Assembly (NCBI RefSeq): GCF_036373705.1
Contig: NW_027102663.1
Location: forward strand, 186,001 to 250,000
Reading direction: 5' to 3'
DNA: 64,000 nt
Source: Amia ocellicauda
Lineage: Eukaryota > Chordata > Actinopteri > Amiiformes > Amiidae
The position numbers and the translations under genes were made by a program. The notes beneath the pieces are model-generated. The model worked only from the letters and a program-made list of their open reading frames with translations, made no database searches and had not been told where the DNA came from. This document shows positions 1 through 64,000 of the stretch, in pieces. Every line of letters begins with the position of its first letter. Positions within the stretch are counted from its first letter, which is position 1.

Positions 1-544
1 TGAAATAGAACAGGAAATAGTAACGGTCTGGTTCAAACAAACAACTGTGTCTCAACTGACTGGGGTGATTCACTTCACACCCCCGACAGACTTCTTTCAG
101 AGCTCGGTCGATGAGAGCACTCAGAATATACACCAGGGTGCTTTTAACCACTCTGCTTACTTGGTCACATACCCCGGGCAAAAATCCTGCGTCTTCATCA
201 CGCCCCCGGGACAGTCCGATGCTCATTGGGTCGCCTGGTGGTTTGTGGGGTGTTTCTCCATCCATTGGACTGACCCCCTCCTGAGACACACAGACGGTAG
301 ACAGTTCGGCAAAATCGAGGCCCTCCATGAGCTCCAGAGGCTGGGGATCCCCGAGACTCATTTGGACATCCATCGCACCGCATGTTGTTTCGTCCTGAGG
401 GACCGGGGTCTGAGGTCTTGGAGAGTAACCACAGTCAAAGGGTTCCAGAGTGTATACAAAATCTGGGGAATAGAACCAGGGGTGATCCCGGGTTTGAAGA
501 GGCCTGTAGAGCCTGTCGACGTCCGCAGCTTTCGGGTAAGACAT
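1..544 (-). CDS. oncoid-like Cys/His-cluster protein, 3' part outside window (E0)
   Basis: This is the N-terminal ~181 codons of the gene that is complete at 16633-17481. The ATG is at 544-542 and the frame stays open to the window edge. It includes the CxxC...HPSQ...H.C cluster near residues 153-168. It differs from the E1 copy by a few substitutions and shows no break. Upstream lie a GATAAAAG box and a TACGTCA site, as in the other copies. Confidence 0.7.
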   Translation of the reverse strand, partial: MSYPKAADVDRLYRPLQTRDHPWFYSPDFVYTLEPFDCGYSPRPQTPVPQDETTCGAMDVQMSLGDPQPLELMEGLDFAELSTVCVSQEGVSPMDGETPHKPPGDPMSIGLSRGRDEDAGFLPGVCDQVSRVVKSTLVYILSALIDRALKEVCRGCEVNHPSQLRHSCLFEPDRYYFLFYF

Positions 545-622
545 TCTCTTTAATTTTAAACCATGAATGAATTGTTGCACCTTTTATCCTATCTCTTCAC
601 TACGTCACGACACACCGCCCTC
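545..622 (-). promoter_or_regulatory. promoter of the oncoid-like gene (E0)
   Basis: On the - strand a TATA-like GATAAAAG lies near 581-590 and a CRE/ATF-type site (TACGTCA, 601-607) lies just upstream of it, between gene X and the oncoid-like gene. The same layout is kept in E1, E2 and E3. The CRE plus TATA order resembles early promoters of small DNA viruses. Function is inferred from the motifs only. Confidence 0.45.
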
Positions 623-1052
623 TTAGAAGAGAGTAGCCCCTGAGCCGTCAGACCCCCCTCCAAAACCCCACACGTCGTCTGTCGTAGTTCTGCAAGCTTT
701 CCCATTCACACCTTTCAAAACCCTGAGTCGGAGACTCCATTTCGCATTCTCTTGGACCCTCTTGCAAGCCTTCTAGAGTCTTATCCACAAGCCCCAGATC
801 TCTCCAGGCCATCACCTTCAACCAGTCCTCATAAGAGTATTCAATTACCGTCTCAAAAGGTTCCAACGTACCCTCCTTCTCTCCCAAAGCAAGAAGCTCC
901 ACTCCAACATAGCTGGGATCCCTTTTAAAGCGGTAACCCCGTCGAGCCCCCCAGAACAACACCCAGGAGCGTTCAATCTTCAAATTGGTGAGTACAGGAA
1001 CCCTTGCCCGGGATTGTTTCTTGCGGGGTTTCATGTTGATGTCGCTGGACAT
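623..1052 (-). pseudogene. gene X with internal deletion (E0)
   Basis: Compared with the intact 236-aa gene at 49988-50698, about 281 bases are missing, joined near 695 at a short CGTC/TCG repeat. The deletion is not a multiple of three, so the frame stops at 648 after 134 codons. The N-terminal basic stretch (KPRKKQSRAR) and the central part are kept, and the acidic Gly/Asp-rich tail is lost. The product is not recognised. Confidence 0.6.
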
Positions 1053-1348
1053 GTTGAAGAAGCGGGATGTTTCAGAAGCTGAGAATTAAAGAGGTATTGC
1101 CTAATAGAAGCGCGGGTTCTTAAATAGAGAGGAGAGTTTCGGGGCGTTGCCTTCAGAGGGGTGGGGGTATTTATGGGTGGCCTTGTTGTTCAGGGTTTTA
1201 TGGGTGCACACTTTCTGACGGATATGACGTAGGAATAATTAAGGAAATAACTCTACCTAAAATCACGCCCCCCAATTATGACGTAGGAATATTAATAAGC
1301 TTAGGGCATACGTCATAACAAAATAGGCCGCGCCCAAAAAACCCTACT
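1053..1348 (-). promoter_or_regulatory. right-end regulatory region with CRE/ATF-like sites (E0)
   Basis: No gene is seen here. On the - strand a TATA-like CTATTTAA (1120-1127) lies about 70 bases upstream of gene X. Farther out are three TGACGTA/TACGTCA motifs: 1225-1231, 1279-1285 and, inverted, 1309-1315. A GC-rich patch (GGCCGCGCCC) lies just inside the end. This suggests a CREB/ATF-responsive promoter close to the element terminus, where replication proteins might also bind. Confidence 0.5.
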
Positions 1349-1671
1349 ATCTACTCTTATGTAGTTGAAGGCGCAGTATAGCTCTCATAGTCTGGTGGTG
1401 ACGGAAGACCACCAGCCGTTTGAACAAGCCATTCAGCATCACCTTGTTGGGTTAAGTGCAGGCACTGTCAGAGCGCAGGGCGTCCTGCCTTTGAAAGAGT
1501 TTCCGAAGTGTCCTGATGTGCCCTTTAGCAATGCCAAACAGGTCTGTGAAAATGGCATCCTTTCGCGGCACTTCAGACGCCATCTCACAGTCTAGCCGAC
1601 CTGAAACGCCTGAGCCCGTTTTACCAGCAGGCTCCAACGGTAACCGTTTGAAGCAAGAGGCGGCGTTGTCA

Positions 1672-1744
1672 GTTTCCGTAGTGTAGCGGTTATCACATTC
1701 GCCTACCGCGCGAAAGGTCCCCGGTTCGAGACCGGGCGGAAACA
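1672..1744 (+). tRNA. tRNA-Val body with ACC anticodon, probably a pseudogene
   Basis: The 73 bases fold as a cloverleaf with GTTTCCG/CGGAAAC acceptor stem, TTCGC/GCGAA anticodon stem and discriminator A. The loop reads CTACCGC, so the anticodon is ACC (a glycine anticodon) where sister genes have AAC. It also differs at position 26 and in the T loop (TTCGAGA). A T4 run at 1764-1767 could end Pol III transcription. Loss of A35 should remove valine identity. Confidence 0.75.
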
Positions 1745-2334
1745 GCCTGCTTTGGGCCGGCCCTTTTCGTCCTGCTTGCCCTCGTGGTTCCCCGCAGGCG
1801 GTGGGTGGCTTTTCTTCATTGGAGTGCCCGAAATCGGTGCTCTCAGAGCGTCCGTCCGTCGACAGGTTGAAATTGTAAACGCTGGTGTAGCCACTTTTAA
1901 TTAAAATCTGATGATGATGATGATGATATTGTTGTTCTTGTTCTTGTTGTTGTTGTTGTTCTTGTTTTTCTTGTTGTCGTCGTGGTCGCCGTCATTATTA
2001 TTGTTAAAGTAAAGCAGTAGTTAGATTTGTTGCTACCGTAAGGTGTAGAAGGCACAATAGCTTTGTGATTGTCTGATGGTGGCACAAGACGAGCAGCAGC
2101 TGTTTGAACAAGCCATTGAGCATCACCTTGTTAGGGTAAGTGTAAGTCTTGTCATAGCTCAGGGCGTTCTTCCTTTGAAAGAGTTTCCAAAGTGTCCTGA
2201 TGTGCCCTTTAGCAATGCAAAATAGGTCAGTGAAAATAGAAACCTTTATCTCACAGGCTGGCCCACGGGAAACCCCTGTGCGCGGTTTACCAGCCGGCTT
2301 CGATGGGAGCCATTTGAAACACCAGGACGGGTCG

Positions 2335-2407
2335 GTTTCCGTAGTGTAGTGGCTATCACGTTCGCCTCACACGCGAAAGGTCCCTGGTTCGAAACCGGGC
2401 GGAAACA
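2335..2407 (+). tRNA. tRNA-Val (CAC)
   Basis: A complete 73-base cloverleaf with acceptor stem GTTTCCG/CGGAAAC, anticodon loop CTCACAC (anticodon CAC) and discriminator A. It is close to vertebrate tRNA-Val-CAC. The T stem contains one T-G wobble (CCTGG/CCGGG), also seen at 52259-52331 and not in the other CAC copies. No CCA is encoded, as expected for a eukaryotic gene. Confidence 0.9.
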
Positions 2408-3009
2408 ACCCGCGGTGCACGCGTGCCAGTGCCGTGTTACCCGTCGCCATCTCTCTGCCCCAAGGCCGGCCGTCGTTTTCTCTTCCTCGGAGTGGCAAGA
2501 AATCCTGACCTTGAGAACAAACAATCGCAGAAGGGTAGCTTTGCGAGGCACTGGAACTGACACTTTTAAAATCGATACATGTTGTTGCTGTTACAATACG
2601 ACCGTAGCAGGATCGGCGACATTGCTGTTACTCTTATGTAGTTGAAGGCGCAGTATAGCTCTGATAGTCTGGTGGTGACGGAAGACCACCAGCCGTTTGA
2701 ACAAGCCATTCAGCATCACCTTGTAGGGCTAAACGCAGGCACTGTCAGAGCGCAGGTCGTCCTGCCTTTGAAAGAGTTTCCGAAGTGTCCCGAAATCGAT
2801 GCACTCAGAGCGTCCGTCCGTCGACAGGTTGAAATTGTAAACGCTGGTGTAGCCACTTTTAATTAAAATCTGATGATGATGATGATGATGATGTTGTTGT
2901 TGTTGTTCTTGTTGTTGTTGTTCTTGTTGTCATCGTGGTCGCCGTCATTATTATTGTTAAAGTAAAGCAGTAGTTAGATTTGTTGCTACCGTAAGGTGTA
3001 GAAGACAAC

Positions 3010-3015
3010 AGTTGG
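3010..3015 (+). other. candidate left terminus of E1
   Basis: The sequence is AGTTGG here and in E4 (53579), and AGTAGG in E2 (19980) and E3 (35476). In the AGTAGG form it is the exact inverse of CCTACT at the right ends. The 5'-AGT...ACT-3' form fits Polinton-like termini, but inverted similarity stops after about six bases, far shorter than usual for the group. Confidence 0.35.
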
Positions 3016-3727
3016 TATGGCGTGTGATATCAAAACATTCAGAATACTTTTAACCTATATAATTTATAAGCTTTGTAAAATAAACCCAAATATCTCTTTT
3101 GCGGGGATAAACGCTGTTCTGAGTAGTTTGTGACTTGTTTAATACCAAACAAAGCATCGGTATAAAAATAAAAAAAAATCACTGTAAAAGCGCTAGTTAT
3201 TTTAGATCTTTATAGTTATTTTCTAGGCTCAGGTTGTTTATTAGTGCTTATAAAGGCCTGAAATATTCTTAGTGGTTGTTGACTATAGGTCTTGATGCTT
3301 AAAAATGTTTTTTTGAGAGACCAAAAGGTTCTAATAAAAGTTTAGAGTAGAGAGGAGAGAGATCGTCTCCATCTTGGTTTCTATTTGAAATTTGATGCAG
3401 TGTCATTTTATTGGTTGGTTTTGATATGTTAATTGGTAACAGGGCGGCACAAAGGCCAGACCAGAACAATGCCTTACAAGCAGATCCGGCATGTGGCCAT
3501 CAGTATAAGTATGAAGGTCTGGTCTTCAGCTCGACAGACTCATACTTACCTTTCGATTTAAGACTAAAGATCAACAATGTCCGGAAACAACATCAGCGAT
3601 TCGATTTAAACGAGTTTTTAGGCAAGTCTTCAGATTATTTTCATTGACTCAGAGCGTGTTGTGTGCATGTATTGTAAATAAGGCTATAACATCTGTTTTA
3701 AGTTCTGTAAAATTATTTTTCAACCAG
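3016..3727 (+). promoter_or_regulatory. left-end region: promoter and unresolved first exon (E1)
   Basis: This AT-rich stretch has a TATA-like TATAAAGG at 3249-3256, a CCAAT-type site in inverse form near 3406, and possible splice signals (GGTAACAG near 3430; a donor-like GTATGA near 3506). The first coding exon of the downstream spliced gene must lie here, but I cannot fix it. A 78-codon ORF at 3411-3647 is open only in E1; a TGA ends it early in E2, E3 and E4, so I do not call it. Confidence 0.4.
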
Positions 3728-5617
3728 TCAACAGGAGTTCATTCCCAACGCTGAGGAGATCATCTGGAACAACGACGGTAAGATTTTTGTGTTTGCGCTC
3801 ATGGGTTCTTATGCATGGGTGTGTGTGGTTTTGAAGCGGCTCATTAGAGTTATGAAAACGTTTTGATATATATTAATGCCGGTCTCTTTAATTACACAGA
3901 AACTATCGAAAGGCCTGTGATTAATGTCTCCGAGGATCGACCAAGAGAAGTGGTTATCCCTAGACAGTCTGTCTGCCGACCGGGTAAGAACTAAACCCCT
4001 GTTTGTTTGTATAACGATTCTGTAAGATGTTTGAGTCCAGTTTTGTTAATTTAAAAAAATTATCCTGTCTAACAGTATTAAGAAATGTGGTTCGAGACAA
4101 CGAAAGGCCTTCCACATCGAGGGCTTGTTTCGTTTTACCTTCGAGAACCGTAACCTTTCAAGAATCTGAAAGGCCGTCAGCCCCGGTATCTGATAGCTGT
4201 GAGTATATATCTGCAGCCTGTAAGAGGTTAAAGCTTTTTATAAAGCGGTGTGGTTAAAGGTTAAACATGTCTCTTACCTTCACAGCGGTGCAAAAAGCTA
4301 AACCAGCCGAAAAACATAAGAAACGATTATTCTGTGGAGGTAAGTAAGATCTTTCAAACTTTAATGTTTTTAAAAGGGCTTTGTTTGCCCGTTGAGGGCT
4401 AATATTTAAGCGATGGGTGACCGTTTCCTGTAGGGCGGGGGGTTCTGGGAAAGATCTTTAGAAGTCCGGACAGGTCTAGGCTTGTTTCTGGGGAACGTGT
4501 TTAGAAATGACCGATTGCCGTACCGTCTGGTTAGGAAGTAAAGCCGTCCGAAAGGGTTTAGTAAGTTGTTTGGCTTATCTCCCGCTATTATACTTCTGTT
4601 TTAAAGTGGTTGTAGGAAAAGGCTTGAAGGTGTTCATTGTATTTAATATTTAAACAGATCGTGAAAACGTTTGTGAAACAGGACGTCCCGGGATCAGGAA
4701 TCGTTTACACTTGGAAGGTTCGTTTAAAAATGAAATGTTGTTGTGTGTGTGTGTGTTTTATTAACAATATTACAGTTTTTAAAGAAACATTTAAGAAACA
4801 GTTTATTTACAGCGGCTTCTCTGTTTTACATTTATTATCAAGTCCTAATAAATATATTGTCTGTAAATAATATTGCGTTGTAGTGAATGTCTAAGGCTAT
4901 TTTCAAAGGTCTAAAAAAGCTAAAGGTTTTGAATGTCCTGGACATGTTGTTTTAAGTTTGATTTTTGTCGCCGTTTAAAGATGTAAATGTAATGTATATT
5001 TTTATTCTTCCCAAGACTCTTGGGATAGTCATTCTGTGGATGAGCTATTGAGAACAATTACCCCGTCTAAGTGGGATCAAACATCTTCCCCGGTGAGATC
5101 ACCGAGTGGATCCCCCACGGTGGTCTTGGAGACCCCCCAACATCTACTCAGGCCACAGCCTTCTGGGGGTAATTCAACACCCCAGATTCAGCCCGCCGCA
5201 TTGTCGGGCGGAACAAATAGAGGCATCCAACAACCTCATGGGTCGCCGTCAGTCAGGGCTGACACACCACCCGACGACGGCCTGGTTTCAACATCGTTCC
5301 CCCAGACCCATTTCTTGGCTACAGAAACGCGGAACAGTTCCCCGCGCTTGGCCAGGGTGTCACCGCAAAGGCCTTCTTGGTCTCCGTCCATGAGTATACG
5401 CTCGCTCCCTGCCTCCTTCGACCGAGATTTACCGGAGCGACCATCCTTTGAAGCTGAGCCAGGCCACCAGCCCCCGGAGCTACTTCCTGAAGGTCGGCAT
5501 GAGTTGCTACATACTTTGTTACAAAATCAAAGACTTGTGTTAGTGGGGCAAAACCTGGTGATAGAGAGCCAAAACACCCTTATTAATACCCTTACTAACG
5601 AATTGTACAGTATTTAA
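3728..5617 (+). CDS. multi-exon gene with all phase-1 introns, unknown function (E1)
   Basis: I do not recognise the product. Six exons can be read: 3728-3777, 3900-3983, 4076-4198, 4286-4339, 4658-4717 and 5016-5617. Each is bounded by AG and GT, and every junction is phase 1, so the inner exons (84, 123, 54 and 60 bases) are all multiples of three and one frame runs through. Several exons carry an ERP motif (IERPVIN, NERPSTS, SERPSAP). The last exon encodes a Ser/Pro/Gln-rich region and then a Leu-rich C-terminal helix (HELLHTLLQNQ). Poly(A) signals follow at 5664 and 5671. The first exon is unresolved, and the donor at 4718 (GTTCGT) is weak. The position beside the polymerase suggests an early or regulatory protein. 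Confidence 0.6.
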
Positions 5618-5800
5618 TGTTTTAATAGACACAAAACGCCTTACTATTGTGGGTTGTTGGAAAAATAAAAAATAAATTAAAAAATGTCCTGACTTGGTAA
5701 AAGAACTCACAAACTAAAGGATTATGAACAAGCTAGGGCCCCAAAAAGACCTTCCCGAGAGAACATCCCCGGCCCTGTTGTGAACTCCTCTGATGTCCCA

Positions 5801-6598
5801 ATGAACCTGGAACTATTACAAATGATAAATGATTTAAATAACCCCCAATTACCACCGATAGAATGTGAATTAACAGACTTACCGGTGAACCCCGACCTGT
5901 TACAGATGGTCAATGATCTAAATAACCACCTCCCACCGGTAGCGCTTATAGAGGCTCACCCCCTAGTTCACCCCGATTTGTTTGAAATGGTGGAGGCTTT
6001 GGAGGAGCTACCCCGACCAAATTCTGCCCCTATTATAAATGATTTGAGACAATTAGAACACAGGATGGCGGCAGAAGCAGCCATCACTATAGAGGAGGGT
6101 CTTGACATTAACCGGTTGGATATCTTTGAAGGACTTTTACAGGCTTTAAATGAGCCTCCTCAAAAAGGGGGTTTTGTAGATGTCAGCAGTGGGGGTGTTC
6201 GGAATGTGGAGGGTTCTGAGACTGATAAGGCTGTGGAGGACATGCTCTGTGAGAATGTAGGGGGTGAAGGCTTTGTTCAAAATGATGATGTGTCCAAGAG
6301 TACCAGTGATCCCGTGATTATAGATAGACCGGCCTATAACAATTTTGAAATGATTCAGCGTTTTAATTTTGCAGAACTTTTAAATTGTGACAATTATGCA
6401 GAAATATTTGTCAACATACACGAGGCCTTGCAGAAAATGCTTGAACAGGTTGCTGAAAGGGTCAGACCTCGAGATGTTGTACAGTTAGAACTCAGAGGGG
6501 ATGATTTGTTTAGCAACCTATCTGTAATGCTGAGTGGAGATAATTTAGATGTCTGGCTAAAATCGAAGCGTTATTTCAAAGTAACGCAGCCATCTTAG
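5801..6598 (+). CDS. probable N-terminal part of the DNA polymerase (265 aa, E1)
   Basis: ATG at 5801 opens a 265-codon ORF; the frame is open upstream to 5693 and a spliced or longer start is possible. The first third holds three near-repeats of the type LELLQMINDLNN / PDLLQMVNDLNN / PDLFEMVEALEE. The last third (from FEMIQRFNF) resembles the region just before the Zn-rich domain of polymerases of this element class. It overlaps the polymerase frame by about 50 bases and is shifted by one base against it. All four copies keep both the ORF and the shift. It could instead be a separate regulatory protein. Confidence 0.55.
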   Translation: MNLELLQMINDLNNPQLPPIECELTDLPVNPDLLQMVNDLNNHLPPVALIEAHPLVHPDLFEMVEALEELPRPNSAPIINDLRQLEHRMAAEAAITIEEGLDINRLDIFEGLLQALNEPPQKGGFVDVSSGGVRNVEGSETDKAVEDMLCENVGGEGFVQNDDVSKSTSDPVIIDRPAYNNFEMIQRFNFAELLNCDNYAEIFVNIHEALQKMLEQVAERVRPRDVVQLELRGDDLFSNLSVMLSGDNLDVWLKSKRYFKVTQPS

Positions 6599-6621
6599 CT
6601 GATGAAAGTCTGTCTCTGGTA

Positions 6622-9600
6622 ATGAATGTGGTTCGTAACCCTGAGGGTGGGGCGCTTAGAAGACTGTCGAAATGCTTGAAGAACGACATAATTAGGACCA
6701 AGCTCAGGCAATTAGTGGTGAGTTCCAGTGGGGACAATAAGCTCTGTTTTGCTTACAGTTTAATAAAACTACTCACCCCCGACATGCCTGAACCCCAAGC
6801 TCTGCAAGAGGCTTTAATGCTTCATCAGAGGGCCGGCTTAAACTCTCAACAGATGGTTGCCTTTTCAGACATCACCAAGTTTGAGGAGTTGTTGTCTTTA
6901 AAAATTGTTGTGTGGTACCGTTGTGAGGTAAAGGAAGTATTTGTGAAATTTCAGACACATCCTGAAACCCATACACAGACACTGTTTCTCTTCCTAAGTG
7001 ATAGTCATTACTTTGGAATAAAGAGTTTGACGGCTTTTTTGGGTTGTTCGTATGTTTGTCATTGGTGTTATAAGGCCTTCAATGATAAGCTTAAGCACCA
7101 CTGTGACGGTTACTGTAACGTCTGTTTCAATCCGCAATGTCATAAGGATTTGGCCCCTACCATCCGATGTAAAGATTGCTTAAGGATTTGTCTCTCAGCG
7201 TTCTGTTTTTCCGAGCATAAGGTACAGAGGGCCGCTGCTGAGGGGGTTAAAAAACTGAGTTATTGTGATCAAACTAAATATTGCCCGCAGTGTTGCCTCC
7301 AGTACCGTTTTCATGAGGTTAAACCACACAAATGTCTGGAGCCGAGATGCAGGATCTGTAATGCTGATTTAACCCCGGGGTCCGAACACCAGTGCTTTAT
7401 TCAGCCGGTTAAAAAGGAGCCGCCGCACAACGGTATGTCTTTTTTGATTTTGAATGCCGGCAAGAAAACGGGGTCCACGTTGCTAATTATATACACTGTA
7501 TTGACATGTTGGATCGTGAGTGGTCAGCTAGCGGTGAGAGTTGTGTCAGGGATTTCTTTACGCGGTATCGCGGTCCAAAATACCTCAATTACACATTTGT
7601 TGCCCACAATGCTAAGGGTTATGATTCTTACATTTTGATGAAGTATCTGGTGGAAAATGGGGTGACCCCAAAAATAATAGCTCAGGGTAGCAAGATCATG
7701 TGTTTCACCGACGAAGCTTTCAACTAACGTTACATAGACTCGTTAAATTTCCTCCCCATGAAATTGAGCGCTTTGCCTAAGGCTCTGGGTTTTGAGGCTC
7801 AGAAGAAAGGTTGGTTCTGCCATTTTTTTAATACTAAGGACACTCAAAATTATCGAGGGTCCTACCCGCCCGCCTCTTATTATGGGGTTGATACTATGAT
7901 GTCTCATGAGAGGGAGGAATTCTTTAAATGGTACAATACGGTTAAGGGAGGTGTTTTTGATTTCCGAGAAGAGATGGCCGCTTATTGTAAAAATGATGTG
8001 GTGATCCTTAAAGAAGCCTGTGTGCGTTTCCGCGCCGAGGTTATCAACACATCGGGTCTCGACCCTTTGCAAAGTGTGACCATAACGTCTCTCTGCATGA
8101 AAATGTATCGGTCCAATTTCTTGCAGAAAAACACTATAGCGGTCACCACTTCTGACAACTATCGTGCTAGACAAAAGAACTTTTCGACTGTCTCCATACA
8201 GTGGCTGGAATACCTGAGTGCCCGGGATAACATCTTCATCAGACATGCTTTAAATCAAGGGGAAGTCAAAATGGGGCCTTACTACTTAGACGGTTTTAGC
8301 GACGTGTTCGGGCGGCGTACCGCTTATGAGTTTGCAGGTTGTATTTACCATGGCTGTCCTCAGTGCTTCGACCCAAACACCTTTAACCCCGTAACACAAA
8401 AACTCTGCGGTGATATGTACTATGATTTCCAGGAACGAATTGAAACTTTAAAAAACACCTATGGTTTGAACGTGCTGGTGATTTGGAAACACGAGTGGAC
8501 GACCCTGAAGCAACAGGAAGCGGGGGTACAACGGTTTATGGAAACCTTGGACTTTCCTGAACGTCTAGAGCCCCGGGATGCGTTATTTGGGGGTCGAACC
8601 TACGCCCTCTGTTTACATTATGAGGTAAAGGAGGGTGAGAGAGTAGATTACTATGATTTCACCAGTCTGTACCCTTATGTCAACAAGACCAAAATGTACC
8701 CGGTGGGGCGTCCAACCATTGTTTATCGTGACTTTCTCGAAATTGGACATTACTTTGGTTTGATCAAAGTCACCATGTACCCTCCTCGCGAGCTGTTCTT
8801 ACCCGTGTTGCCTTACAGGTGTTCGGGAAAATTGATGTTCCCTCTGTGTAGAACGTGTGTGGAAACTGAAAATCAAACTACCTCTTGTCTGCACAGTGAT
8901 GAAGATAGAGCGCTGACGGGTGTCTGGTGTAGCATTGAGCTTGACAAGGCGGTGTAGAAAGGTTACAGAGTCGGTAAGGTGTATGAGGTTTGGCATTTTT
9001 CTGAAAAATCTGATACTCTTTTTGCTGATTACATTATGACCCATCTGAAAGGGAAACAGGAGGCATCGGGCTATCCCTCATGGTGTGTTGACTCCGCGGC
9101 CAAAGAGCGATACGTTCATCAATATTTTGAAAAGGAAGGGATCCGTCTAGAGCCGGGGAACATAACTGTAAACCCCGCCAAGAGACAAATGTCCAAACTG
9201 ATTTTAAACAGTCTGTGGGGTAAGTTTGGGGAAAGAAATTACCGTCTAAACACAACCTTGATTAAAACCCCTGAACAGTTTATAGAATTTACGTTTTCCA
9301 AACAACATGCAGTATCACACTTTCAATTCTTAAATGACCACGTGGCACAGGTCCAGTGGAGGGCCCCTAAAGATTTCCCCACCAAACAGGGGAACGTTAA
9401 TGTTTTCATAGCGGTTTTTACCACGGCTTACGCCCGGCTTGAATTGTACAACTTAATGGATCAGTTGCAGGAACGCACGCTCTATCATGATACTGACTCT
9501 GTAATCTTTGTCACCAGGCCAGGGGATTGGGTCCCTCCCCTCGGGGACTACCTTGGGGAGTTAACGAGCGAACTAGATCCTCAGGACCACATAGTGGAGT

Positions 9601-9907
9601 TTGTTTCAGGGGGTCCTAAGACGCATACAGAACGGCTGCGGGTAAGACCTGTATGAAAGTTAAGGGTTTCACTCTGAACCATTGTAACAACAAGCTCATT
9701 AACATCAAGTCTCTGACGACCCTGGTAGAAAGTTTTGTAACCGAGAAAGACGCGCCTCCTCGTGAGATTATTACAGCCGGAAATCAAATCTATCGCAATA
9801 AAAAGGGGTACACGTTGGAAAATAGATCACTAAACAAACGGTTCAGGGTGGTGTACAATAAAAGAGTCTTGAAGACTGATTATACCACTCTGCCTTATGG
9901 ATATTAG
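6622..9907 (+). pseudogene. POLB: protein-primed family B DNA polymerase, broken (E1)
   Basis: This enzyme would copy the linear element from protein-primed ends. In order it has an N-terminal domain, a Cys/His-rich region (about 7050-7400), exonuclease motifs I (from 7433), II (HNAKGYDSY, 7590-7628) and III (YCKND, 7979-8002), Pol motif A (DFTSLYP, 8653-8673), motif B (about 9197-9230) and motif C (YHDTDSV, 9483-9503). Breaks: one base lost near 7431, TAA at 7725-7727, TAG at 8955-8957, and four bases lost near 9622. The frame is open upstream to about 6543. The 3' end overlaps the ATPase start by 11 bases. Confidence 0.9.
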
Positions 9908-10568: not shown

Positions 10569-10574
10569 ATAAGA

Positions 10575-54296: not shown

Positions 54297-56182
54297 TCAA
54301 CAGGAGTTAATTCCCAACGCTGAGGAGATCATCTGGAACAACGACGGTAAGATTTTTGTGTTTGCGCTCATGGGTTCTTATGCATGGGTGTGTGTGGTTT
54401 GAAGCGGCTCATTAGAGTTATGAAAACGTTTTAATATATATTAATGCCGGTCTCTTTAATTACACAGAAACTATCGAAAGGCCTGTGATTAATGTCTCCA
54501 AGGATCGACCAAGAGAAGTGGTTGTCCCTAGACAGGCTGTCTGCCGACCGGGTAAGAACTAAACCCCTGTTTGTTTGTATAACGTTTCTGTAAGATGTTT
54601 GAGTCCAGTTTTGTTAATTTTAAAAAATTATCCTGTCTAACAGTATTAAGAAACGTGGTTTGAGACAACGAAAGGCCTTCCACATCGAGGGCTTGTTTCG
54701 TTTTACCTTCGAGAACCGTAACCTTTCAAGAATCTGAAAGGCCGTCAGCCCCGGTATCTGATAGCTGTGAGTATATATCTGCAGCCTGTAAGAGGTTAAA
54801 GCTTTTTATAAAGCGGTGTGGTTAAAGGTTAAACATGTCTCTTACCTTCACAGCGGTGCAAAAAGCTAAACCAGCCGAAAAACATAAGAAACGATTATTC
54901 TGTGGAGGTAAGTAAGATCTTTCAAACTTTAATGTTTTTAAAAGGGCTTTGTTTGCCCGTTGAGGGCTAATATTTAAGCGATGGGTGACCGTTTCCTGTA
55001 GGGCGGGGGGTTCTGGGAAAGATCTTTAGAAGTCCGGACAGGTCTAGGCTTGTTTCTGGGGAACGTGTTTAGAAATGACCGATTGCCGTACCGTCTGGTT
55101 AGGAAGTAAAGCCGTCCGAAAGGGTTTAGTAAGTTGTTTGGCTTATCTCCCGCTATTATACTTCTGTTTTAAAGTGGTTGTAGGAAAAGGCTTGAAGGTG
55201 TTCATTGTATTTAATATTTAAACAGATCGTGAAAACGTTTGTGAAACAGGAAGTCCCGGGATCAGGAAGCGTTTACACTTGGAAGGTTCGTTTAAAAATG
55301 AAATGTTGTTGTGTGTGTGTGTGTTTTATTAACAATATTACAGTTTTTAAAGAAACATTTAAGAAACAGTTTATTTACAGCGGCTTCTCTGTTTTAAATT
55401 ATCAAGTCCTAATAAATATATTGTCTGTAAATAATAAGGCGTTGTAGAGAATGTCTAAGGCTATTTTCAAAGGTCTAAAAAAGCTAAAGGTTTTGAATGT
55501 CCTGGACATGTTGTTTTAAGTTTGATTTCTGTCGCCGTTTAAAGATGTAAATGTAATGTATATTTTTATTCTTCCCAAGACTCTTGGGATAGTCATTCTG
55601 TGAATGAGCTATTGAGGACAATTACCCCGTCTAAGTGGGATCAAACATCTTTCCCGGTGAGATCACCGAGAGGATCCCCCACGATGGTCTTGGAGACCCC
55701 CCAACATCTACTCAGGCCACAGCCTTCTGGGGGTAATTCAACACCCCAGATTCAGCCCGCCGCATTGTCGGGCGGAACAAATACAGGCATCCAACAACCT
55801 CAGGGGTCGCCGTCAGTCAGGTCTGACACACCACCCAACGACGGCCTAGTTTCAACATCGTCCCCCCAGACCCGTTTCTTGGCTACCGAAACGCGAAACA
55901 GTAACCCTGCGCTTGGCCAGGGTGTCACCGCAAAGGCCTTCTTGGTCTCCGTCCATGAGTATACACTCGCTCCCTGCCTCCTTCGACCGAGATTTACCGG
56001 AGAGACCATCCTTTGAAGCTGAGCCAGGCCACCAGCCCCCGGAGCTACTTCCTGAAGGTCGGCATGAGTTGCTACATACTTTGTTACAAAATCAAAGACT
56101 TGTGTTAGTGGGGCAAAACCTGGTGATAGAGAGCCAAAACACCCTTATTAATACCCTTACTAACGAATTGTACCGTATTTAA
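54297..56182 (+). pseudogene. multi-exon gene, broken (E4)
   Basis: Exons 54297-54346, 54468-54551, 54644-54766, 54854-54907, 55226-55285 and 55580-56182 keep their splice sites. A TGA at 54661-54663 interrupts the third, and one extra base near 55894 shifts the last exon so that the Ser/Pro-rich part ends early at 56016. Confidence 0.6.
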
Positions 56183-56365
56183 TGTTTAAATAGACACAAA
56201 ACGCCTTACTATTGTGGGTTGTTGGAAAAATAAAAAATAAATTAAAAAATGTCCTGACTTGGTAAAAGAACTCACAAACTAAAGGATTATGAACAAGCTA
56301 GGGCCCCAAAAAGACCTTCCCGAGAGAACATCCCCGGCCCTGTTGTGAACTCCTCTGATGTCCCA

Positions 56366-57163
56366 ATGAACCTGGAACTATTACAAATGATAAATTATTT
56401 AAATAACCCCCAATTACCACCGATAGAATGTGAATTAACAGACTTACCTGTGAACCCCGACCTGTTACAGATGGTCAATGATCTAAATAACCACCTCCCA
56501 CCGGTAGCGCTTATAGAGGTTCACCCCCTAGTTCACCCCGATTTGTTTGAAATGGTGGAGTCTTTGGAGGAGCTACCCCGACCAAATTCTGCCCCTATTA
56601 TAAATGATTTGAAACAATTAGAACACAGGATGGCGGCAGAAGCAGCCATCACTATAGAGGAGGGTCTTGACATTAACCGGTTGGATATCTTTGAAGGACT
56701 TTTACAGGCTTTAAATGAGCCTCCTCAAAAAGGGGGTTTTGTAGATGTCAGCAGTGGGGGTGTTCGGAATGTGGAGGGTTCTGAGACTGATAAGGCTGTG
56801 GAGGACATGCTCTGTGAGAATGTAGGGGGTGAAGGCTTTGTTCAAAATGATGATGTGTCCAAGAGTACCAGTGATCCCGTGATTATAGATAGACCGGCCT
56901 ATAACAATTTTGAAATGATTCAGTGTTTTAATTTTGCAGAACTTTTAAATTGTGACAATTATGCAGAAATATTTGTCAACATACACGAGGCCTTGCAGAA
57001 AATGCTTGAACAGGTTGCTGAAAGGGTCAGACCTCGAGATGTTGTACAGTTAGAACTCAGAGGGGATGATTTGTTTAGCAACCTATCTGTAATGCTGAGT
57101 GGAGATAATTTAGATGTCTGGCTAAAATCGAAGCGTTATTGCAAAGTAACGCAGCCATCTTAG
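56366..57163 (+). CDS. probable polymerase N-terminal part (E4)
   Basis: 265 codons, open from ATG 56366, with the shared offset to the polymerase frame. It stays intact although the polymerase behind it has lost its exonuclease domain. Confidence 0.5.
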   Translation: MNLELLQMINYLNNPQLPPIECELTDLPVNPDLLQMVNDLNNHLPPVALIEVHPLVHPDLFEMVESLEELPRPNSAPIINDLKQLEHRMAAEAAITIEEGLDINRLDIFEGLLQALNEPPQKGGFVDVSSGGVRNVEGSETDKAVEDMLCENVGGEGFVQNDDVSKSTSDPVIIDRPAYNNFEMIQCFNFAELLNCDNYAEIFVNIHEALQKMLEQVAERVRPRDVVQLELRGDDLFSNLSVMLSGDNLDVWLKSKRYCKVTQPS

Positions 57164-57186
57164 CTGATGAAAGTCTGTCTCTGGTA

Positions 57187-58200
57187 ATGAATGTGGTTCG
57201 TAACCCTGAGGGTGGGGCGCTTAGAAGACTGTCGAAATGCTTGAAGAACGACATAATTAGGACCAAGCTCAGGCAATTAGTGGTGAGTTCCAGTGGGGAC
57301 AATAAGCTCTGTTTTGCTTACAGTTTAATAAAACTACTCACCCCCGACATGCCTGAACCCCAAGCTCTGCAAGAGGCTTTAACGCTTCATCAGAGGGCTG
57401 GCTTAAACTCTCAACAGAGGGTTGCCTTTTCAGACATCACCAAGTTGCAGGAACATAACTGTAAACCCCGCCAAGAGACAAATGTCCAAACTGATTTTAA
57501 ACAGTCTGTGGGGTAAGTTTGGGGAAAGAAATTACCGTCTAAACACAACCTTGATTAAAACCCCTGAACAGTTTATAGAATTTATGTTTTCCAAACAACA
57601 TGCAGTATCACACCTTCAATTCTTAAATGACCACGTGGCACAGGTCCAGTGGAGGGCCCCTAAAGATTTCCCCACCAAACAGGGGAACGTTAATGTTTTC
57701 ATAGCGGTTTTTACCACGGCTTACGCCCGGCTTGAACTGTACAACTTAATGGATCAGTTGCAGGAACGCACACTCTATCATGATTCTGACTCTGTAATCT
57801 TTGTCACCAGGCCAGGGGATTGGGTCCCTCCCCTCGGGGACTACCTTGGGGAGTTAACGAGCGAACTAGATCCTCAGGACCACATAGTGGAGTTTGTTTC
57901 AGGGGGTCCTAAGACGCATACAGAACGGCTGCGGGTAAGACCTGTATGAAAGTTAAGGGTTTCACTCTGAACCATTGTAACAACAAGCTCATTAACATCA
58001 AGTCTCTGACGACCCTGGTAGAAAGTTTTGTAACCGAGAAAGACGCGCCTCCTCGTGAGATTATTACAGCCGGAAATCAGATCTATCGCAATAAAAAGGA
58101 GTACACGTTGGAAAATAGATCACTAAACAAACGGTTCAGGGTGGTGTACAATAAAGGAGTGTTGAAGACTGATTATACCACTCTGCCTTATGGATATTAG
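57187..58200 (+). pseudogene. POLB: DNA polymerase remnant with 2.3-kb deletion (E4)
   Basis: At about 57447 the sequence jumps from the N-terminal domain to the region just before motif B, removing the Cys/His region, the exonuclease and motif A. Motif C reads YHDSDSV. The four-base loss near 57914 is the same as in E1. Confidence 0.88.
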
Positions 58201-58861
58201 CGGTGGTTTTGATAACAGACTTCAACACCCTTTCTCCTGTATTATAGCCGGTCCCTCCAATTCGGGGAAGAGCTATCTTATAAGGAACATCATAGAAGAT
58301 GTGGACGCAACCGTGTCCCAAGCTCTTGACAACATAGTGTGGTGTTACTCTTGCTGGCAACCTGTCTACGATGATTTGGCTTCGAAAAAAAATAATCTGA
58401 AATTTGTGCAAGGTCTCCCCGCCTCGTTGTAAGACGATGACTTGTTCCCGCCCGGTCAAACTAACCTAGTGATCCTTGATGACCTGATGGAGCAGGCCGG
58501 TGACAACAGTGAAGTGGAAAAAGCTTTCACAAAGTACACTCATCATAGGAATTTAAGTATTCTTTATTTAGTTCAAAATCTATTTTTTCAAGGTAAAAAA
58601 AGCCGCACTATTAATTTAAATGCCAATTATATAATTCTTTTTAAAAACCCCAGAGATAAACTACAGGTCACCGTCTTGGCTCGTCAAATGTACCCTAACC
58701 AGACCAAGTTCTTTTTGGAGGCATTTGAGGATGCCACCAAAAAACCCTACGGGTACTTGATTGCGGACTTAAAAGCACAAACCCCAGAAGACTTTCGCCT
58801 CAGAACAGGTTTGTGCCCGCCCGATTGGCCGGCAGTGTATGTGCTAAAGAAAAGGAAATAA
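58190..58861 (+). pseudogene. ATP: packaging ATPase with nonsense codon (E4)
   Basis: Walker A (GPSNSGKS) and Walker B (LVILDD) are present, but TAA at 58430-58432 follows LPASL at residue 80 and separates them. Confidence 0.85.
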
Positions 58862-58867
58862 ATAAGA

Positions 58868-59203
58868 ATGTCTGTTCGGATTAAAAGAAATCTGCCACTT
58901 TTGCAAATGTTATTTGAGGGGAGCCTGCGCCATAGGAAAGCTGTGCTGGCAGGGGCCCCCTCGGATTTGATCGAGACCATGTGTGAAATAGCTTTTAACA
59001 TCTTACACGGTAATATACCCCTAACCCCTTCTTAACATTCTAAACTCAAAAAACAAAAAGCGGTTATCAAGATCATCGCTAATAAGAAGTATTCTATTAA
59101 AAGAAAAAGAAAGAAGATTAATCAAACCAGGGGTTTTATAGGACTGCTGTTGAGCATAGCCGTGCCTTTCCTAACCAGTCTTCTAGCTTCCAGAGTGGGT
59201 TAA
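58868..59203 (+). pseudogene. small basic protein with nonsense codon (E4)
   Basis: TAA at 59033-59035 replaces Gln in PLTPSQHS, removing the basic and hydrophobic parts. This is the only broken copy of this gene. Confidence 0.6.
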
Positions 59204-59205
59204 TA

Positions 59206-59949
59206 ATGGAATATGCTCAGAAAATGTTTTTGATCCCTCAGGAGCAGCTTGAGAAACTGAGAAAAAATGTTGTCGGGCAAGAGCCCATTAGACAAACGGC
59301 CGAAAACAACCTGGACTCTGAAATGAAAGCTATACAGGCCAGGGCCGATTTAAATCAGTATTCCAAAGCCCAGTTGTATACCAACACGTTACAGCGTTAC
59401 CTCCGTCTGGTTAGACAGGGTGAAAAAGATCAAAACATTTTAACTTTAACCATGGCCTCTCAAGAAAATGGTTCTGGGGCTGATGCGGGGGGTACGGTTG
59501 ATAAAGATGTTGCGGTGACCGAACCTGTTGAGAGTTCAGAGGGAGATGTTGTAACGGATGTTTTGAGAAACATGCCGGCCAGAAGCAGGAGACATGCAGA
59601 ATATATCCTGCGCAAAATGGTTCAGAAACCGCGGGTAACGGCTTGGAATGAACAGGGTGAATTTGTTTTTAAAGGACAACTGATCAAAGGTTCACACATG
59701 TTTGATTTGTTGAAGAGTGTCAATAGCACTAATAAGGTACCCGAGAGTCGCCGACCTGTAGGCTGGAATGCTTTCCTACAGGCGATGGCCTGTCTGAACA
59801 TGCCCCAATCCACAGTTCCTAACCAGGAAACGCGACAAAAAATCCATCTGTGTAAAGAGGTGTAGCCTGATCTGACTCCGATATCTCATTACTCTGACCG
59901 TGCTTAGCGACCATCCTCAGGATCTATCCATCGTTGGGAAGCTTATTAA
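59206..59949 (+). pseudogene. conserved 247-aa element protein, truncated by stops (E4)
   Basis: TAG at 59863-59865 ends it after 219 codons, with a second TAG shortly after (GCTTAG near 59903). The GEFVFKGQLIKGSH and PVGWNAFLQ motifs are upstream of the stop and intact. Confidence 0.6.
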
Positions 59950-60128
59950 TCTCATGTTTTTATTTGTCTCCCCTGTAAATAATGACCCGACAAACAATTT
60001 TTTATTTATTTTTTTTTATTTTCAAATGTTGTACATTTATTTATAACATAACCCCTGCTTTGTATAAGAATTGTTTTGAATAAAAACAAAACTAATGATT
60101 CAAAGGCTGTTTTCTTTATTTTTTCACC
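59950..60128. terminator. convergent poly(A) region (E4)
   Basis: AATAAA near 60079 (+) and TTTATT near 60036 (-). No gene is seen. Confidence 0.55.
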
Positions 60129-60685
60129 TTAACACGCATGACATCTTTTAAAATCCTCACAAGAACACCCCATCTGTATACATGACTGGCTAGGGTCGTA
60201 AGTCATTGTGTTATAAGGGGGGTCCACAGTGTACTGACAAACTCTGCCACTTTTTTATCATTTTGGCCTAAATCCTCACTGTACAAGGCCATAATATCGG
60301 GGTATGACCTTCCTTTAGATCTATGATATAAGAAAAACACACAGTGCTGACCACAAGTGAAGGTCTGAAGACTTTGTACTTGACGACCGCTGTAAATGGT
60401 TTCTTGACAGTTGTTGAGCAGAAAGTTATTGATCTTCCGAGGGAAAGGTCTGAAATCCGGGGGGTTTCCATAGGAATCAAAAAATTCACCACGGTGGTCC
60501 TCCCTTAGATAAATAGCCAGCCAATGTTCTCCGGGCATATTTTTAGGGTGTGTGTTGATTATGTACATTGCAGGTAAATTCTTGATCTTAAATTTAGGTA
60601 GCTGATCGCAGGCGTAGACTCCTTGAAACAGTTTCCGTGAGCCGGCCAGGGCATTCATGATGTGGTTGAGCTCTCTGGTGTTCAT
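60129..60685 (-). pseudogene. PRO: adenain-type protease, frameshifted at 3' end (E4)
   Basis: One G is missing from the G run near 60220, so the frame ends at 60203. The active-site His, Asp and Cys all lie before the break; only the last ~25 residues, including the Cys-rich tail, are lost. Confidence 0.85.
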
Positions 60686-60686
60686 T

Positions 60687-61978
60687 TTAATAATAATCAT
60701 ACCGAACGTTTCTCCTCCGATTCACCTCAATAATGTTGTCAAACACAGCATACACGACCATATTTACAGTGCGTGGTAGAGGCTGCTTGAAACGCATCTC
60801 CAAACGCATATTGCCCGTCTTCATCAGTGAAAAATGTTGTCCACACTCTTCGTCAGGGGTCAGGTTGAAACCGTACAGGGTGTAACCGCTGCAGTATTCC
60901 CGGCGATCGATCAGCAGAGTTTGATCCTTGAGATGGCGACCCGTAGCCAGTACTACACTGTAATATTCACGAACCGCATTGCCGTTTTCAAAGTCAGGTT
61001 GAAAAGGTCTGGATGGAACCTGCACACCATCGACGTACAACGCTATAAATTCCGCGTTATAATGTTTAAAGTTAAAAAGGTTCTTGTTGTAAACCCCGGT
61101 AAATGCATCATTATCCACGAGACCAATAATAACCTGTTTTGGGAGCTGTCCTAGAAACAGATTTTCCTGGTTCATCACCCGTGTCCCTGCAGGGATACTG
61201 TGGACTTTCATATAGACTCTTTCGATCGGGTACTTAACGCCTGCGCGTGTCCTAGTTTAACCGCCGGGGAGACGGACACTTTTTTCACAAACAGCGAGGC
61301 CGATAATATGGTCAGTTTATATTTTTCAGTATCAGGGGTCATCAGATAAAAAGCACTTTTACTACGGATCATTTTAATTTTAATGTCTACCCCGTTGAGC
61401 ATGAGTTTTTCTTGGAAAAATATGTCTGCATTGATATGCCCCATTAGCTCAAAGGTCCTCCCTTCTGTTGAAGAGGCCGTTCTTTTTTGCAAACCCTTAT
61501 TGAGTCCCTCTGGATCCTTGTCGTCCATAGCTTCCGGGTTGTCTTTGAAGAAAAGGCCGGGGCTGAACTGTTTGCTTAGGGTCTCCTCACTATAATTAAG
61601 GATACACTCCATCATGGCTCTATAGGGGTAAGTATTGCTGCTTTGACTAATGAGCCGATCTCCCAGGGTCACATCCACCTGTGAAAACATGGTGGCCACC
61701 GGGTAATTGATGACCCCAGCGTTGGCCGTCTTCTCGATTGCATCGCCATCCTCATTAGTCACTTTACAGTTCATTAAAATAAATGTGTTATTCAAATCAT
61801 TATAATCCTCGCCATTGCCAGCTATAAAAAACTCCAGAGGGGCCATGTCTGAAATTGCAGAAAGAGGGGGAATCTCTACATATATGCTCTTATCTATACT
61901 CGTTTGAGTGTATGGAACTGTAAACAGATCCAGTTCTGATTTGACGCATTCTTCCAATAGACTGTGGACAAAAGACAT
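60687..61978 (-). pseudogene. major capsid protein with 16-base deletion (E4)
   Basis: Open from 61978 to about 61234, where 16 bases are missing; the second half continues in another frame to 60687. Both jelly-roll halves are otherwise preserved. Confidence 0.82.
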
Positions 61979-61980
61979 GT

Positions 61981-62468
61981 TTAAAAGATATATCCTGAGG
62001 CTCTATTTTTCTTTCTTTGAGACTTTCTTTTTGCAGGTTTTTTCTTGTGCTGCTTCCTTCTCCGAGTGTTTCCACGATATGTTGGAGAATGAGAGATTCT
62101 TCGTTTTCTGTTAGCCACGGATCATCGTCGCCCTGGTGGACACATGCTGTTTCTTCTTTTACCCCCCCTCCTCGCCATTACCATGAGACCCGAACCCTCC
62201 TGATGCTCATGGCTAGCTGCCCGGTTCATAACATTGGTGAACACGTCACTAACAATATTTTTAGCCGCTGATTTCAAGTGGGGTCTGGCTATAGCAAAGC
62301 CTCTCTTAAGCAGGGGTACGGCCATTCTAAAGAGACCACGAAAGAGTCCTCCTAGACCGGCGCCATACATTGTGGGGGCTCCTACAAAACCGGGCAAGCC
62401 GTTCCATCTTGCATCTTGTAATAATCCACATTGGCGCTAGGATCTACATAACCCCTCGAGGTAGCCAT
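61981..62468 (-). pseudogene. protein VI-like protein, frameshifted (E4)
   Basis: Shares the early one-base loss with E3 (near 62405). A private TGA falls after SMCPPGRR, so the basic tail is lost. Confidence 0.6.
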
Positions 62469-62469
62469 T

Positions 62470-63204
62470 TTAATAATGTACACACTGTTTCAGGGGTCGA
62501 AAATGTAGTTTGACAACTTAACTTTACCGAAGCGGAAGGGTACGTTGATATTCTGATCCGATTTGACTTCGATCGTGATGTTGTCAAAGTGGGTCTTTGA
62601 GACTGGTACGTAGTGTGGCTTGTCATAAGTAATTGTGACCATGTCATTGCTTTTACCTTTAATAAGTACATTTCTCAAAAGGGGGACATAACTATCCCCG
62701 ACCCTCTGGTGGGTTATGATATCCGTATACACATAAAGAGTGTAAAAGCCGCCCCACCACTTCTGAGAACCTGCTCTCTGTGTCAGAATAGAACCCTAAT
62801 ATACGCCCCAGTTGGCCGCTGGTTTGAATGCTAATACCTGGTTTTGACACCTTGTACACTCTGTTTTTAATAGGGTTGTAATATAGCTTGATGTTGGGGG
62901 TGCCTTCTGAGAACTGTTTATGCATCTCATCTAATATTTTATCCACATTGTCATAATAACCTCCTTGTATCGTGAATGTCCATTGACTCTTTTTAACATC
63001 ATCAAAAATGGCGAAGGTGGCATCCTTATCTTGTAAAACAGCCCAAGTGTAAGGATACTGTATTTCCGCCAACCCCACTTCCCACGACCCTCTTAGATCT
63101 AAAGATTTTCCAAATTGTACCGTGTAACTGGATATTTCATTTTTAGGGTATATATCGAGAGAGGCGTTACTGGGTAGAGTCACGTAGAAGCCTCCTGATT
63201 CCAT
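62470..63204 (-). pseudogene. minor capsid (penton) protein, frameshifted (E4)
   Basis: Carries the shared split (first frame ends at 62692) and two extra bases near 62516 that alter the last residues of the C-terminal frame. Confidence 0.76.
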
Positions 63205-63250
63205 CTTGAGTATCGAGAGTAATGCCCCCAACACACCCGCGGGCATGTTG

Positions 63251-64000
63251 TTATAAGGATTGAATATCGCAAACCTGTTGTTCCGGGACCCAACTATTGA
63301 ACTTTTCAGGCCATCCAAGCCATTTCACCAACACATATTTTTTCCGGTTCTGGGTTTTTTCAGCTAATATCTTTTCAACTCTGTATACACTGTCTTTACC
63401 CACAATAATTTTTTGTAACTCGGCTTCGTAAAACGTTCCTTCTATATCCTCCCCGTCATAGTCTTTTAACCGGTACACGGGGGGGGCTCTAGCCAACTGT
63501 TCGGTAACTGTAAAATATTCGTCAGAAAATGTTTGTTCATAACCTTTGGCAAAAGTACTCCTTAGCTTTGAAACGCGAACCACATCACCGATGTTGAACT
63601 TATAAGTAGTTTTTCCCTTCTTAATAAATGGTCCGTATAATTTTGTATAGACCTGAAAAGAATTACTTTGATCAACATCTATAGACTTCATTTTAATACT
63701 GGTGTGATACCCTTGGTTGTAAGCATCAATAAAATCCTGAACTTTATCAAAATACTTGAACGTGTTGACCGCTGTAAAATATCTCCACATTTTGGTCTTT
63801 ATGGTGCGGTTAAACCTCTCCACTACCGATGCTTTAAGCTCATTTCCGGTGGTGAAATGATGTATTTTGTGTCTCTTCAGTAGATTCTGAAATTCTCTGT
63901 TGAGAAACTCTTTTCCTTAATCAGTCTGCAGTTTTTTAGGACATCGACCCTGGGACAATATATCCTCAAAGACCCTCGTCACCGCTCAACCTGTTTTATT
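63251..64000 (-). pseudogene. INT: DDE/chromodomain integrase, partial and broken (E4)
   Basis: The C-terminal two-thirds is in the window. TAA at 63919-63917 (in the DKGKEF motif, just after the second catalytic Asp) and TGA at 63988-63986 interrupt it. The chromodomain is open. The 5' part lies beyond the window. Confidence 0.85.

What the first reader, a model, noticed from the sequence alone, without database searches (positions are those of the whole stretch)
1..64000. Head-to-tail array of at least five Polinton/adintovirus-like elements interleaved with tRNA-Val clusters
Five copies of one 15.3-15.5 kb element lie in the same orientation, separated by 0.6-2.6 kb of tRNA-Val monomers. 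Left ends always follow GAAGACAAC and right ends always precede ATCTACTCTTATGTAG, so these are not independent insertions but one insertion multiplied together with the tRNA genes. Polintons are usually dispersed; a composite virus/tRNA tandem repeat is unusual and could be a large, copy-variable locus.
Basis: partly seen in the sequence, partly recalled or inferred. Interest (0 to 1): 0.88.

Follow-up and report, generated by a model that had tools for sequence, protein, structure and literature searches.

The report
Endogenous virus copied inside tRNA array
Five copies of one Maverick-type virus genome (two cut off by the window edges, one lacking its right end) lie head to tail between tRNA-valine genes with the same joins to the tRNA repeat, so a single captured virus was likely multiplied by recombination of the host's tRNA array rather than by its own jumping.

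Summary
The array is real. The window holds two full-length (15.3 and 15.5 kb), one right-truncated and two window-cut copies of one element, same orientation, with 0.55-2.58 kb of tRNA-Val units between them. Gene order, polymerase, chromodomain integrase and a predicted double-jelly-roll capsid protein place it with vertebrate Mavericks/adintoviruses; terminal inverted repeats beyond 6 bp and a target-site duplication were not found. All three copies that keep the region share one stop codon, likely inside the polymerase domain; 4 of 4 element-side tRNA spacers share a base that 4 of 4 other spacers lack. The founder was therefore likely one virus, already polymerase-dead, sitting where a tRNA-Val(CAC) unit is expected, and multiplied with its tRNA flanks. 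Copies differ by 1.1-1.7%, mostly by private changes, and show no clear selection (pN/pS 0.78, p = 0.08). Unequal exchange is the likely route. Copy number, array ends and species are unknown: the genome search did not complete. New variant of a known kind: a provirus turned into a satellite-like part of a tRNA locus.

The parts
1..1348 (+). copy c0, right end only (cut by window edge)
3010..18348 (+). copy c1, complete, 15,339 bp
19980..34921 (+). copy c2, right end missing about 416 bp; private deletion of about 214 bp at 30557/30558
35476..50994 (+). copy c3, complete, 15,519 bp
53579..64000 (+). copy c4, cut by window edge; 2,269-bp deletion in the polymerase at 57450
1349..3009 (+). spacer: A unit with tRNA (ACC), B unit with tRNA-Val(CAC), A' unit without tRNA
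18349..19979 (+). spacer: A' unit, B unit (CAC), A unit (AAC)
34922..35475 (+). spacer: one 5'-truncated A unit (AAC)
50995..53578 (+). spacer: A/B hybrid unit (CAC), A', B (CAC), A', A-type unit with B-like start (AAC)
1672..1744 (+). Val-like tRNA gene with anticodon ACC (ARAGORN: tRNA-Gly)
2335..2407 (+). tRNA-Val(CAC)
19008..19080 (+). tRNA-Val(CAC)
19622..19694 (+). tRNA-Val(AAC)
35118..35190 (+). tRNA-Val(AAC)
51297..51369 (+). tRNA-Val(CAC) in the hybrid unit
52259..52331 (+). tRNA-Val(CAC)
53203..53275 (+). tRNA-Val(AAC)
5036..5617 (+). accessory ORF of 193 aa (c1), unknown
5801..6598 (+). accessory ORF of 265 aa (c1), open in 4 of 4 copies, unknown
39033..42323 (+). family-B DNA polymerase frame of c3, three in-frame stops
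40137..40139 (+). TAA in the polymerase frame, shared with c1 7725-7727 and c2 24699-24701
42313..42984 (+). packaging ATPase candidate (c3; Pox_A32 match below cut-off)
42991..43326 (+). small ORF in PM position (c3)
43329..44072 (+). ORF in PZ position (c3)
44252..44824 (-). adenain-like protease candidate (c3); Peptidase_C5 just below cut-off, tested on the c2 homologue
12292..13692 (-). major capsid protein, open in c1 (466 aa)
13845..14198 (-). ORF in PW position (c1)
   Evidence: name by position
14405..15031 (-). minor capsid candidate (c1), by position only
14964..16073 (-). integrase with rve core and chromodomain, open in c1
49061..49909 (-). accessory ORF of 282 aa (c3), no relative found
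34918..34921 (+). 4-base overlap of the two matches at the c2 right-end deletion junction

Best explanation
One Maverick/adintovirus genome was likely captured once in a tandem tRNA-Val array, likely already carried a stop codon in its DNA polymerase, and was likely amplified together with its tRNA flanks by unequal exchange between the tRNA units, giving the head-to-tail array of five copies seen in this window. Shown: common orientation, common junction motifs (left 4 of 4, right 3 of 4), a common stop in the polymerase frame (3 of 3 copies that keep it), a common marker base in the left flank, private decay without clear selection, and rearranged tRNA units. Inferred: that the capture replaced one tRNA-Val(CAC) unit (the element lies A-element-A where A-B-A is expected), that the host recombination machinery did the copying, and that later short-homology deletions trimmed single copies. 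No function of the copies was detected; the tRNA units are the likely reason the locus keeps recombining.
For: Junctions: GTAGAAGACAAC left in 4 of 4, ATCTACTCTTATGTAG right in 3 of 4. The same TAA in the polymerase frame in 3 of 3 copies that keep it; in c1, c2 and c3 alike the piece before it matches the Pfam polymerase profile at positions 6-46 (weakly, E 0.03-0.06) and the piece after it from position 61 on (E down to 5.6e-27), so the stop likely lies within the domain. Left-flank spacer base A in 4 of 4 element-side units, G in 4 of 4 others. On the right, one flank variant occurs only in the units after c0 and c3 (2 of 8 A-type units), and c0 is also closest to c3 in the adjoining virus part (0.78%, against 1.28% to c2 and 1.96% to c1). 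Signs of exchange among units: an A/B hybrid tRNA unit at 51010, four A' units with the same tRNA-less join, spacers of 1 to 5 units. Star-like divergence: 261 single-copy changes and 33 two-against-two sites (20, 7, 6) among 10,134 four-way sites. Private substitutions 190 nonsynonymous to 67 synonymous, pN/pS 0.78, p = 0.08 against neutrality.
Against: The star-like pattern also fits a burst, such as circle amplification, rather than stepwise exchange. No crossover between whole composite units was identified directly. The array ends were not seen. The low ratio of transitions to transversions (121 to 140 among 261 private changes) leaves room for some sequencing error, although 39 of the 261 are CpG-type transitions. 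The marker base is one site. A second right-flank variant first thought to mark c0 and c3 is also in the unit at 52975, which does not follow an element (3 of 8). The Pfam matches before the shared stop are below cut-off, and the longer 394-aa c3 piece gave no polymerase match.
Confidence: 0.74

Rival explanations
1. Circle or rolling-circle amplification: a composite circle (virus plus tRNA units) was excised, replicated as concatemers and re-integrated in one burst; later exchange altered the spacers.
For: Mostly private changes, few shared ones (261 against 33 of 10,134 sites), as a burst would leave.
Against: Spacers differ in number and kind of tRNA units (554 to 2584 bp), which a single circle would not give without later exchange; no direct trace of a circle.
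Confidence: 0.13
2. Independent insertions at a preferred tRNA target by the element's chromodomain integrase.
For: The integrase has an rve core and a chromodomain; retroelements that choose tRNA genes as targets are mentioned in a passage of PMC2888827.
Against: No matching 6-bp duplication flanks the copies, the same polymerase-frame stop is in 3 of 3, no long inverted repeats were found for an integrase to use, and a flank marker base goes with the element.
Confidence: 0.04
3. Assembly artefact: one or two copies chained falsely by the assembler.
For: No reads were available; long near-identical repeats are a classic source of misjoins.
Against: Each of c1-c4 has private substitutions and there are private deletions of about 214 and 2,269 bp and a truncated end; the spacers differ. 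False chaining of one copy would not create these.
Confidence: 0.05
4. The array is kept by selection as a multi-copy antiviral or virophage-like store (viral proteins or small RNAs against incoming viruses).
For: Capsid, protease, ATPase-candidate, integrase and accessory frames are each open in at least one copy; endogenous virophages with such a role are reported in a protist (PMC10945749: title and start of abstract in the listing only).
Against: Private stops and frameshifts, and pN/pS not distinguishable from 1; no expression data.
Confidence: 0.04

Closest known systems
Vertebrate Mavericks/Polintons (PMC8097293: passages; sections 6 and 7 read)
   Same: Two gene modules on opposite strands facing the centre, polymerase-ATPase-PM-PZ and integrase-minor capsid-PW-major capsid-protease; accessory ORFs outside; size near the reported mean of 16.9 kb
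   Different: No inverted repeat beyond 6 bp found, no 6-bp target duplication, head-to-tail in a host gene array
Adintoviruses (Pimephales minnow adintovirus integrase, named)
   Same: Integrase 53% identical over 96% of the query, with rve and chromodomain; both fall in one clade with fish relatives
   Different: Distant: the two top-ranked integrase relatives are 59% identical over 96%; polymerase frame broken in every copy that holds it; part of a host tRNA array
tRNA gene clusters of fishes (PMC2888827: abstract and passages)
   Same: Same-orientation tRNA clusters; 65% (zebrafish) and 87% (stickleback) of tRNA genes and pseudogenes are reported as clustered
   Different: Here a 15-kb provirus forms part of the repeated unit
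TE-derived satellites (PMC12628747: passages; McGurk and Barbash 2018 seen only as its reference entry)
   Same: Tandem arrays of mobile DNA expanded by unequal exchange
   Different: Here the recombining homology is likely the host tRNA unit and not the element itself; the unit is a whole virus genome
R1/R2 and Pokey in rDNA (recalled, no call)
   Same: Mobile DNA living inside a host tandem gene array
   Different: Those insert repeatedly by their own machinery; the copies here share one insertion event

Membership tests
Maverick/Polinton (adintovirus) | Family-B DNA polymerase | tested here: met
   PF03175 E 8.5e-25 (c2 piece) and 5.6e-27 (c1 piece); broken in every copy that holds it
Maverick/Polinton (adintovirus) | Retroviral-type integrase | tested here: met
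   rve 7e-12 and chromodomain 2.6e-8; 57% to an Astyanax and 53% to a minnow adintovirus integrase
Maverick/Polinton (adintovirus) | Double-jelly-roll major capsid protein | tested here: met
   1290 relatives among 7991 scored candidates, searched with the c2 fusion ORF; names among the 120 listed are of fishes, amphibians and reptiles. Model of the c1 protein, pLDDT 75, matches iridovirus, Sputnik, PBCV-1 and mavirus capsid proteins, best E 2.1e-16; TM to the model only 0.45-0.58 and rmsd 6.8-15.7 in the 50 shown; no PDB sequence match at E<=1 for the profile
Maverick/Polinton (adintovirus) | Adenain-like protease | tested here: inconclusive
   PF00770 20.3 bits, cut-off 21.3; right position
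Maverick/Polinton (adintovirus) | Packaging ATPase | tested here: inconclusive
   PF04665 20.6 bits, cut-off 22.8; right position
Maverick/Polinton (adintovirus) | Two converging modules in the published gene order | tested here: met
   against section 7 of PMC8097293; minor capsid, PM, PZ and PW assigned by position only
Maverick/Polinton (adintovirus) | Terminal inverted repeats (46-1447 bp in intact elements) | tested here: not met
   No end-to-end pair among the 25 shown of 57 inverted repeats of 16 bp or more; best local score between the ends of c3 22, shuffled mean 22.5, maximum 28 of 100; only AGTAGG/CCTACT. Published degraded copies often lack discernible repeats. So a degraded relative, not an intact member
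Maverick/Polinton (adintovirus) | 6-bp target-site duplication | tested here: not met
   GACAAC left, ATCTAC right
tRNA gene tandem array | Repeated same-orientation tRNA units with conserved spacers | tested here: met
   8 tRNAs, all on the + strand; the other B units 96-99% identical to the B query, A-type units 77-80%

The most novel reading that the evidence does not exclude
The host's tRNA-Val array works as an amplifier: recombination that adjusts tRNA gene number has turned a 15-kb animal virus genome, unable to copy itself, into a long, copy-variable satellite in which a virus stands in for a tRNA-Val unit, with capsid, protease, ATPase and integrase frames still open in one copy or another.
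Probability: 0.3. Interest if true: 0.8.

Novelty: new variant of a known kind. Interest (0 to 1): 0.58.

Why it matters
Mavericks are thought to spread with their own polymerase and integrase (established view, partly recalled). Here the sequence indicates that a provirus with a likely dead polymerase multiplied anyway, by riding a recombining tRNA locus. That gives endogenous viruses a second route to high copy number, links tRNA gene dosage to virus load, and warns that Maverick copy counts need not reflect transposition. Copy number could be measured directly by read depth at the two junctions.

Tried and rejected
Independent insertions: rejected on junctions, flank marker and shared stop. 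Terminal inverted repeats: looked for twice, not found. The 533-aa ORF of c2, first taken as the capsid protein, is a fusion made by a private deletion of about 214 bp that joins the upstream small ORF to the capsid frame; c1 (466 aa) was used afterwards. Viral contigs: capsid (c2 ORF), integrase and ATPase queries gave 3, 5 and 10 pattern matches, none confirmed. PHROGs: 0 families for 7 proteins. NCBIfam: of 6 proteins only the integrase matched, to insertion-sequence transposases below their cut-offs. The 282-aa ORF: 655 candidates, none at E<=0.001. Two right-flank variants were first counted as private to c0 and c3 among 7 units; on a recount over 8 units one of them also occurs elsewhere. 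Papers: ten searches; no title listed concerns a Maverick or adintovirus inside a tRNA array, but only open-licence PMC papers are held, long result lists were cut, and I saw listings only, except for passages of three papers and two sections of one. So copy number, array ends, empty sites and species are unknown.
Full report
WHAT IS THERE. Self-comparison of the window shows five copies of one element on one strand: c0 1-1348, c1 3010-18348, c2 19980-34921, c3 35476-50994, c4 53579-64000. c0 and c4 are cut by the window, so the array runs beyond it on both sides. Pairwise divergence of c1-c4 is 1.12-1.72%; c0 against c1, c2 and c3 is 1.96, 1.28 and 0.78% over 858-1275 sites. Between the copies lie 1661, 1631, 554 and 2584 bp of tRNA-bearing DNA with eight tRNA genes, all on the + strand.

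JUNCTIONS. The left flank motif is the same in 4 of 4 copies (the first bases of the element read AGTAGG in c2 and c3, AGTTGG in c1 and c4). The bases next to the ends, GACAAC and ATCTAC, are not a duplication.

THE tRNA UNITS. Two kinds of unit occur: A (tRNA-Val AAC, one with ACC) and B (tRNA-Val CAC). Against a B unit as query, the other B units are 96-99% identical, the hybrid unit 88% and A-type units 77-80%. Of the four A ends not followed by the element, three run into B and one into a hybrid start; of the seven A starts listed, four follow a B-type end and three follow the element. The element therefore sits A-element-A, where A-B-A is expected. Whether the B unit was lost at the capture or by later exchange cannot be told. 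Exchange among units is visible: an A/B hybrid at 51010, an A-type unit with a B-like start at 52897, and four A' units that have lost the tRNA gene with the same join.

ONE INSERTION, MULTIPLIED. The last part of the A unit before the element carries one base (A) in 4 of 4 cases that is G in 4 of 4 A units not before the element. On the right, one variant is found only in the units after c0 and c3 (2 of 8 A-type units); a second one, found in both, is also in a unit that follows no element (3 of 8). In the virus part next to that flank, c0 is likewise closest to c3 (0.78%). Flank and virus thus seem to have travelled together. Inside the virus, a TAA codon lies in the polymerase frame of all three copies that keep the region (c4 has lost it, c0 does not reach it). 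The pieces before it match the Pfam polymerase profile at positions 6-46 in c1, c2 and c3 alike, each weakly (E 0.03-0.06, below cut-off; the longer 394-aa c3 piece gave no such match), and the pieces after it match from position 61 with E 5.6e-27, 1.7e-14 and 3.1e-21. The stop thus likely lies inside the domain and is not the end of a gene. The founder was then likely polymerase-dead before it multiplied, which speaks against self-copying, unless a helper supplied the polymerase.

AFTER MULTIPLICATION. Of 10,134 sites present in four copies, 261 differ in one copy only, and 33 are split two against two in three conflicting ways (20, 7, 6), with one multi-state site. This is a burst-like pattern with some exchange or conversion; c2 and c3 differ by only 0.2% in two neighbouring kilobases. 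Private changes in eleven frames count 190 nonsynonymous and 67 synonymous, pN/pS 0.78, p = 0.08, with 12 private stops. Dropped before that count: codons present in fewer than three copies, without a clear majority, with a majority stop, or differing at more than one base; no correction for mutation bias was made, so mild constraint cannot be excluded. Against a purely natural reading of all changes, 121 of the 261 are transitions and 140 transversions, which is low; 39 are CpG-type transitions. Breaks by gene: polymerase broken in every copy that holds it; capsid frame open in c1 (N-terminus lost in c2, frameshifts in c3 and c4); integrase open in c1 (stops in c2, c3 and the part of c4 in the window); protease open in c1-c3; ATPase candidate open in c2 and c3; the 265-aa accessory frame open in c1-c4; the 282-aa frame open in c1-c3.

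WHAT THE ELEMENT IS. Family-B polymerase, integrase with chromodomain, and weak, below-cut-off matches for protease and ATPase. The capsid search, made with the c2 fusion ORF, gave 1290 relatives among 7991 scored candidates; the c1 protein is 55-71% identical to the 26 aligned (26 of the 120 listed). Its model (pLDDT 75) matches double-jelly-roll capsid proteins of an iridovirus, Sputnik, PBCV-1 and mavirus with strong E-values but moderate TM scores of 0.45-0.58 (the double-jelly-roll label is recalled), and no PDB sequence matches the profile. The integrase is 57% identical to an Astyanax protein and 53% to that of Pimephales minnow adintovirus. In a tree of 31 relatives plus the query it falls in a clade of 28 whose named members are all fish or the minnow adintovirus (support 0.971); its closer place is weakly supported (0.5 and 0.656). 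The host is therefore likely a fish, but it was not identified. Gene order fits the published vertebrate Maverick plan. Inverted repeats and target duplication, which intact elements have, were not found; published degraded copies often lack discernible repeats too. The six bases AGTAGG/CCTACT at the two ends resemble the published (AGT)2//(ACT)2 motif, but do not equal it.

HOW IT LIKELY WORKS. A virus genome was likely captured in a tRNA-Val array. The array, being made of similar units, would recombine unequally, and the virus was likely carried along with its flanks as one more unit. The virus contributes nothing measurable to this; it decays. A burst through circular intermediates remains possible. 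Independent insertion and assembly error are unlikely for the reasons given.

LIMITS. The assembly could not be searched, no reads were available, and so copy number, array length, variability and species are open. The literature searches cover only open-licence PMC papers.

Noticed in passing
1672-1744: A tRNA with a valine body but anticodon ACC (glycine codons); ARAGORN calls it tRNA-Gly. Either a pseudogene or a gene that could misread if charged.
   Followed up: partly
2641-3009, 18364-18713, 51603-51968, 52564-52896: Four A' units that lack the tRNA gene, with the same deletion join in 4 of 4, so the deleted form itself seems to have been copied around the array.
   Followed up: partly
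51010-51590: A hybrid tRNA unit that starts as A and continues as B with tRNA-Val(CAC).
   Followed up: partly
29372-30973: In c2 a private deletion of about 214 bp fuses the small upstream ORF to the capsid frame, giving one 533-aa open frame.
   Followed up: yes
49061-49909: 282-aa accessory ORF, open in 3 of 3 copies that hold it, with no relative at E<=0.001 among 655 candidates.
   Followed up: partly
51297-51369 and 53203-53275: The Rfam scan at gathering threshold listed only 2 of the 8 tRNAs that ARAGORN found; perhaps a filter effect of the scan.
   Followed up: no
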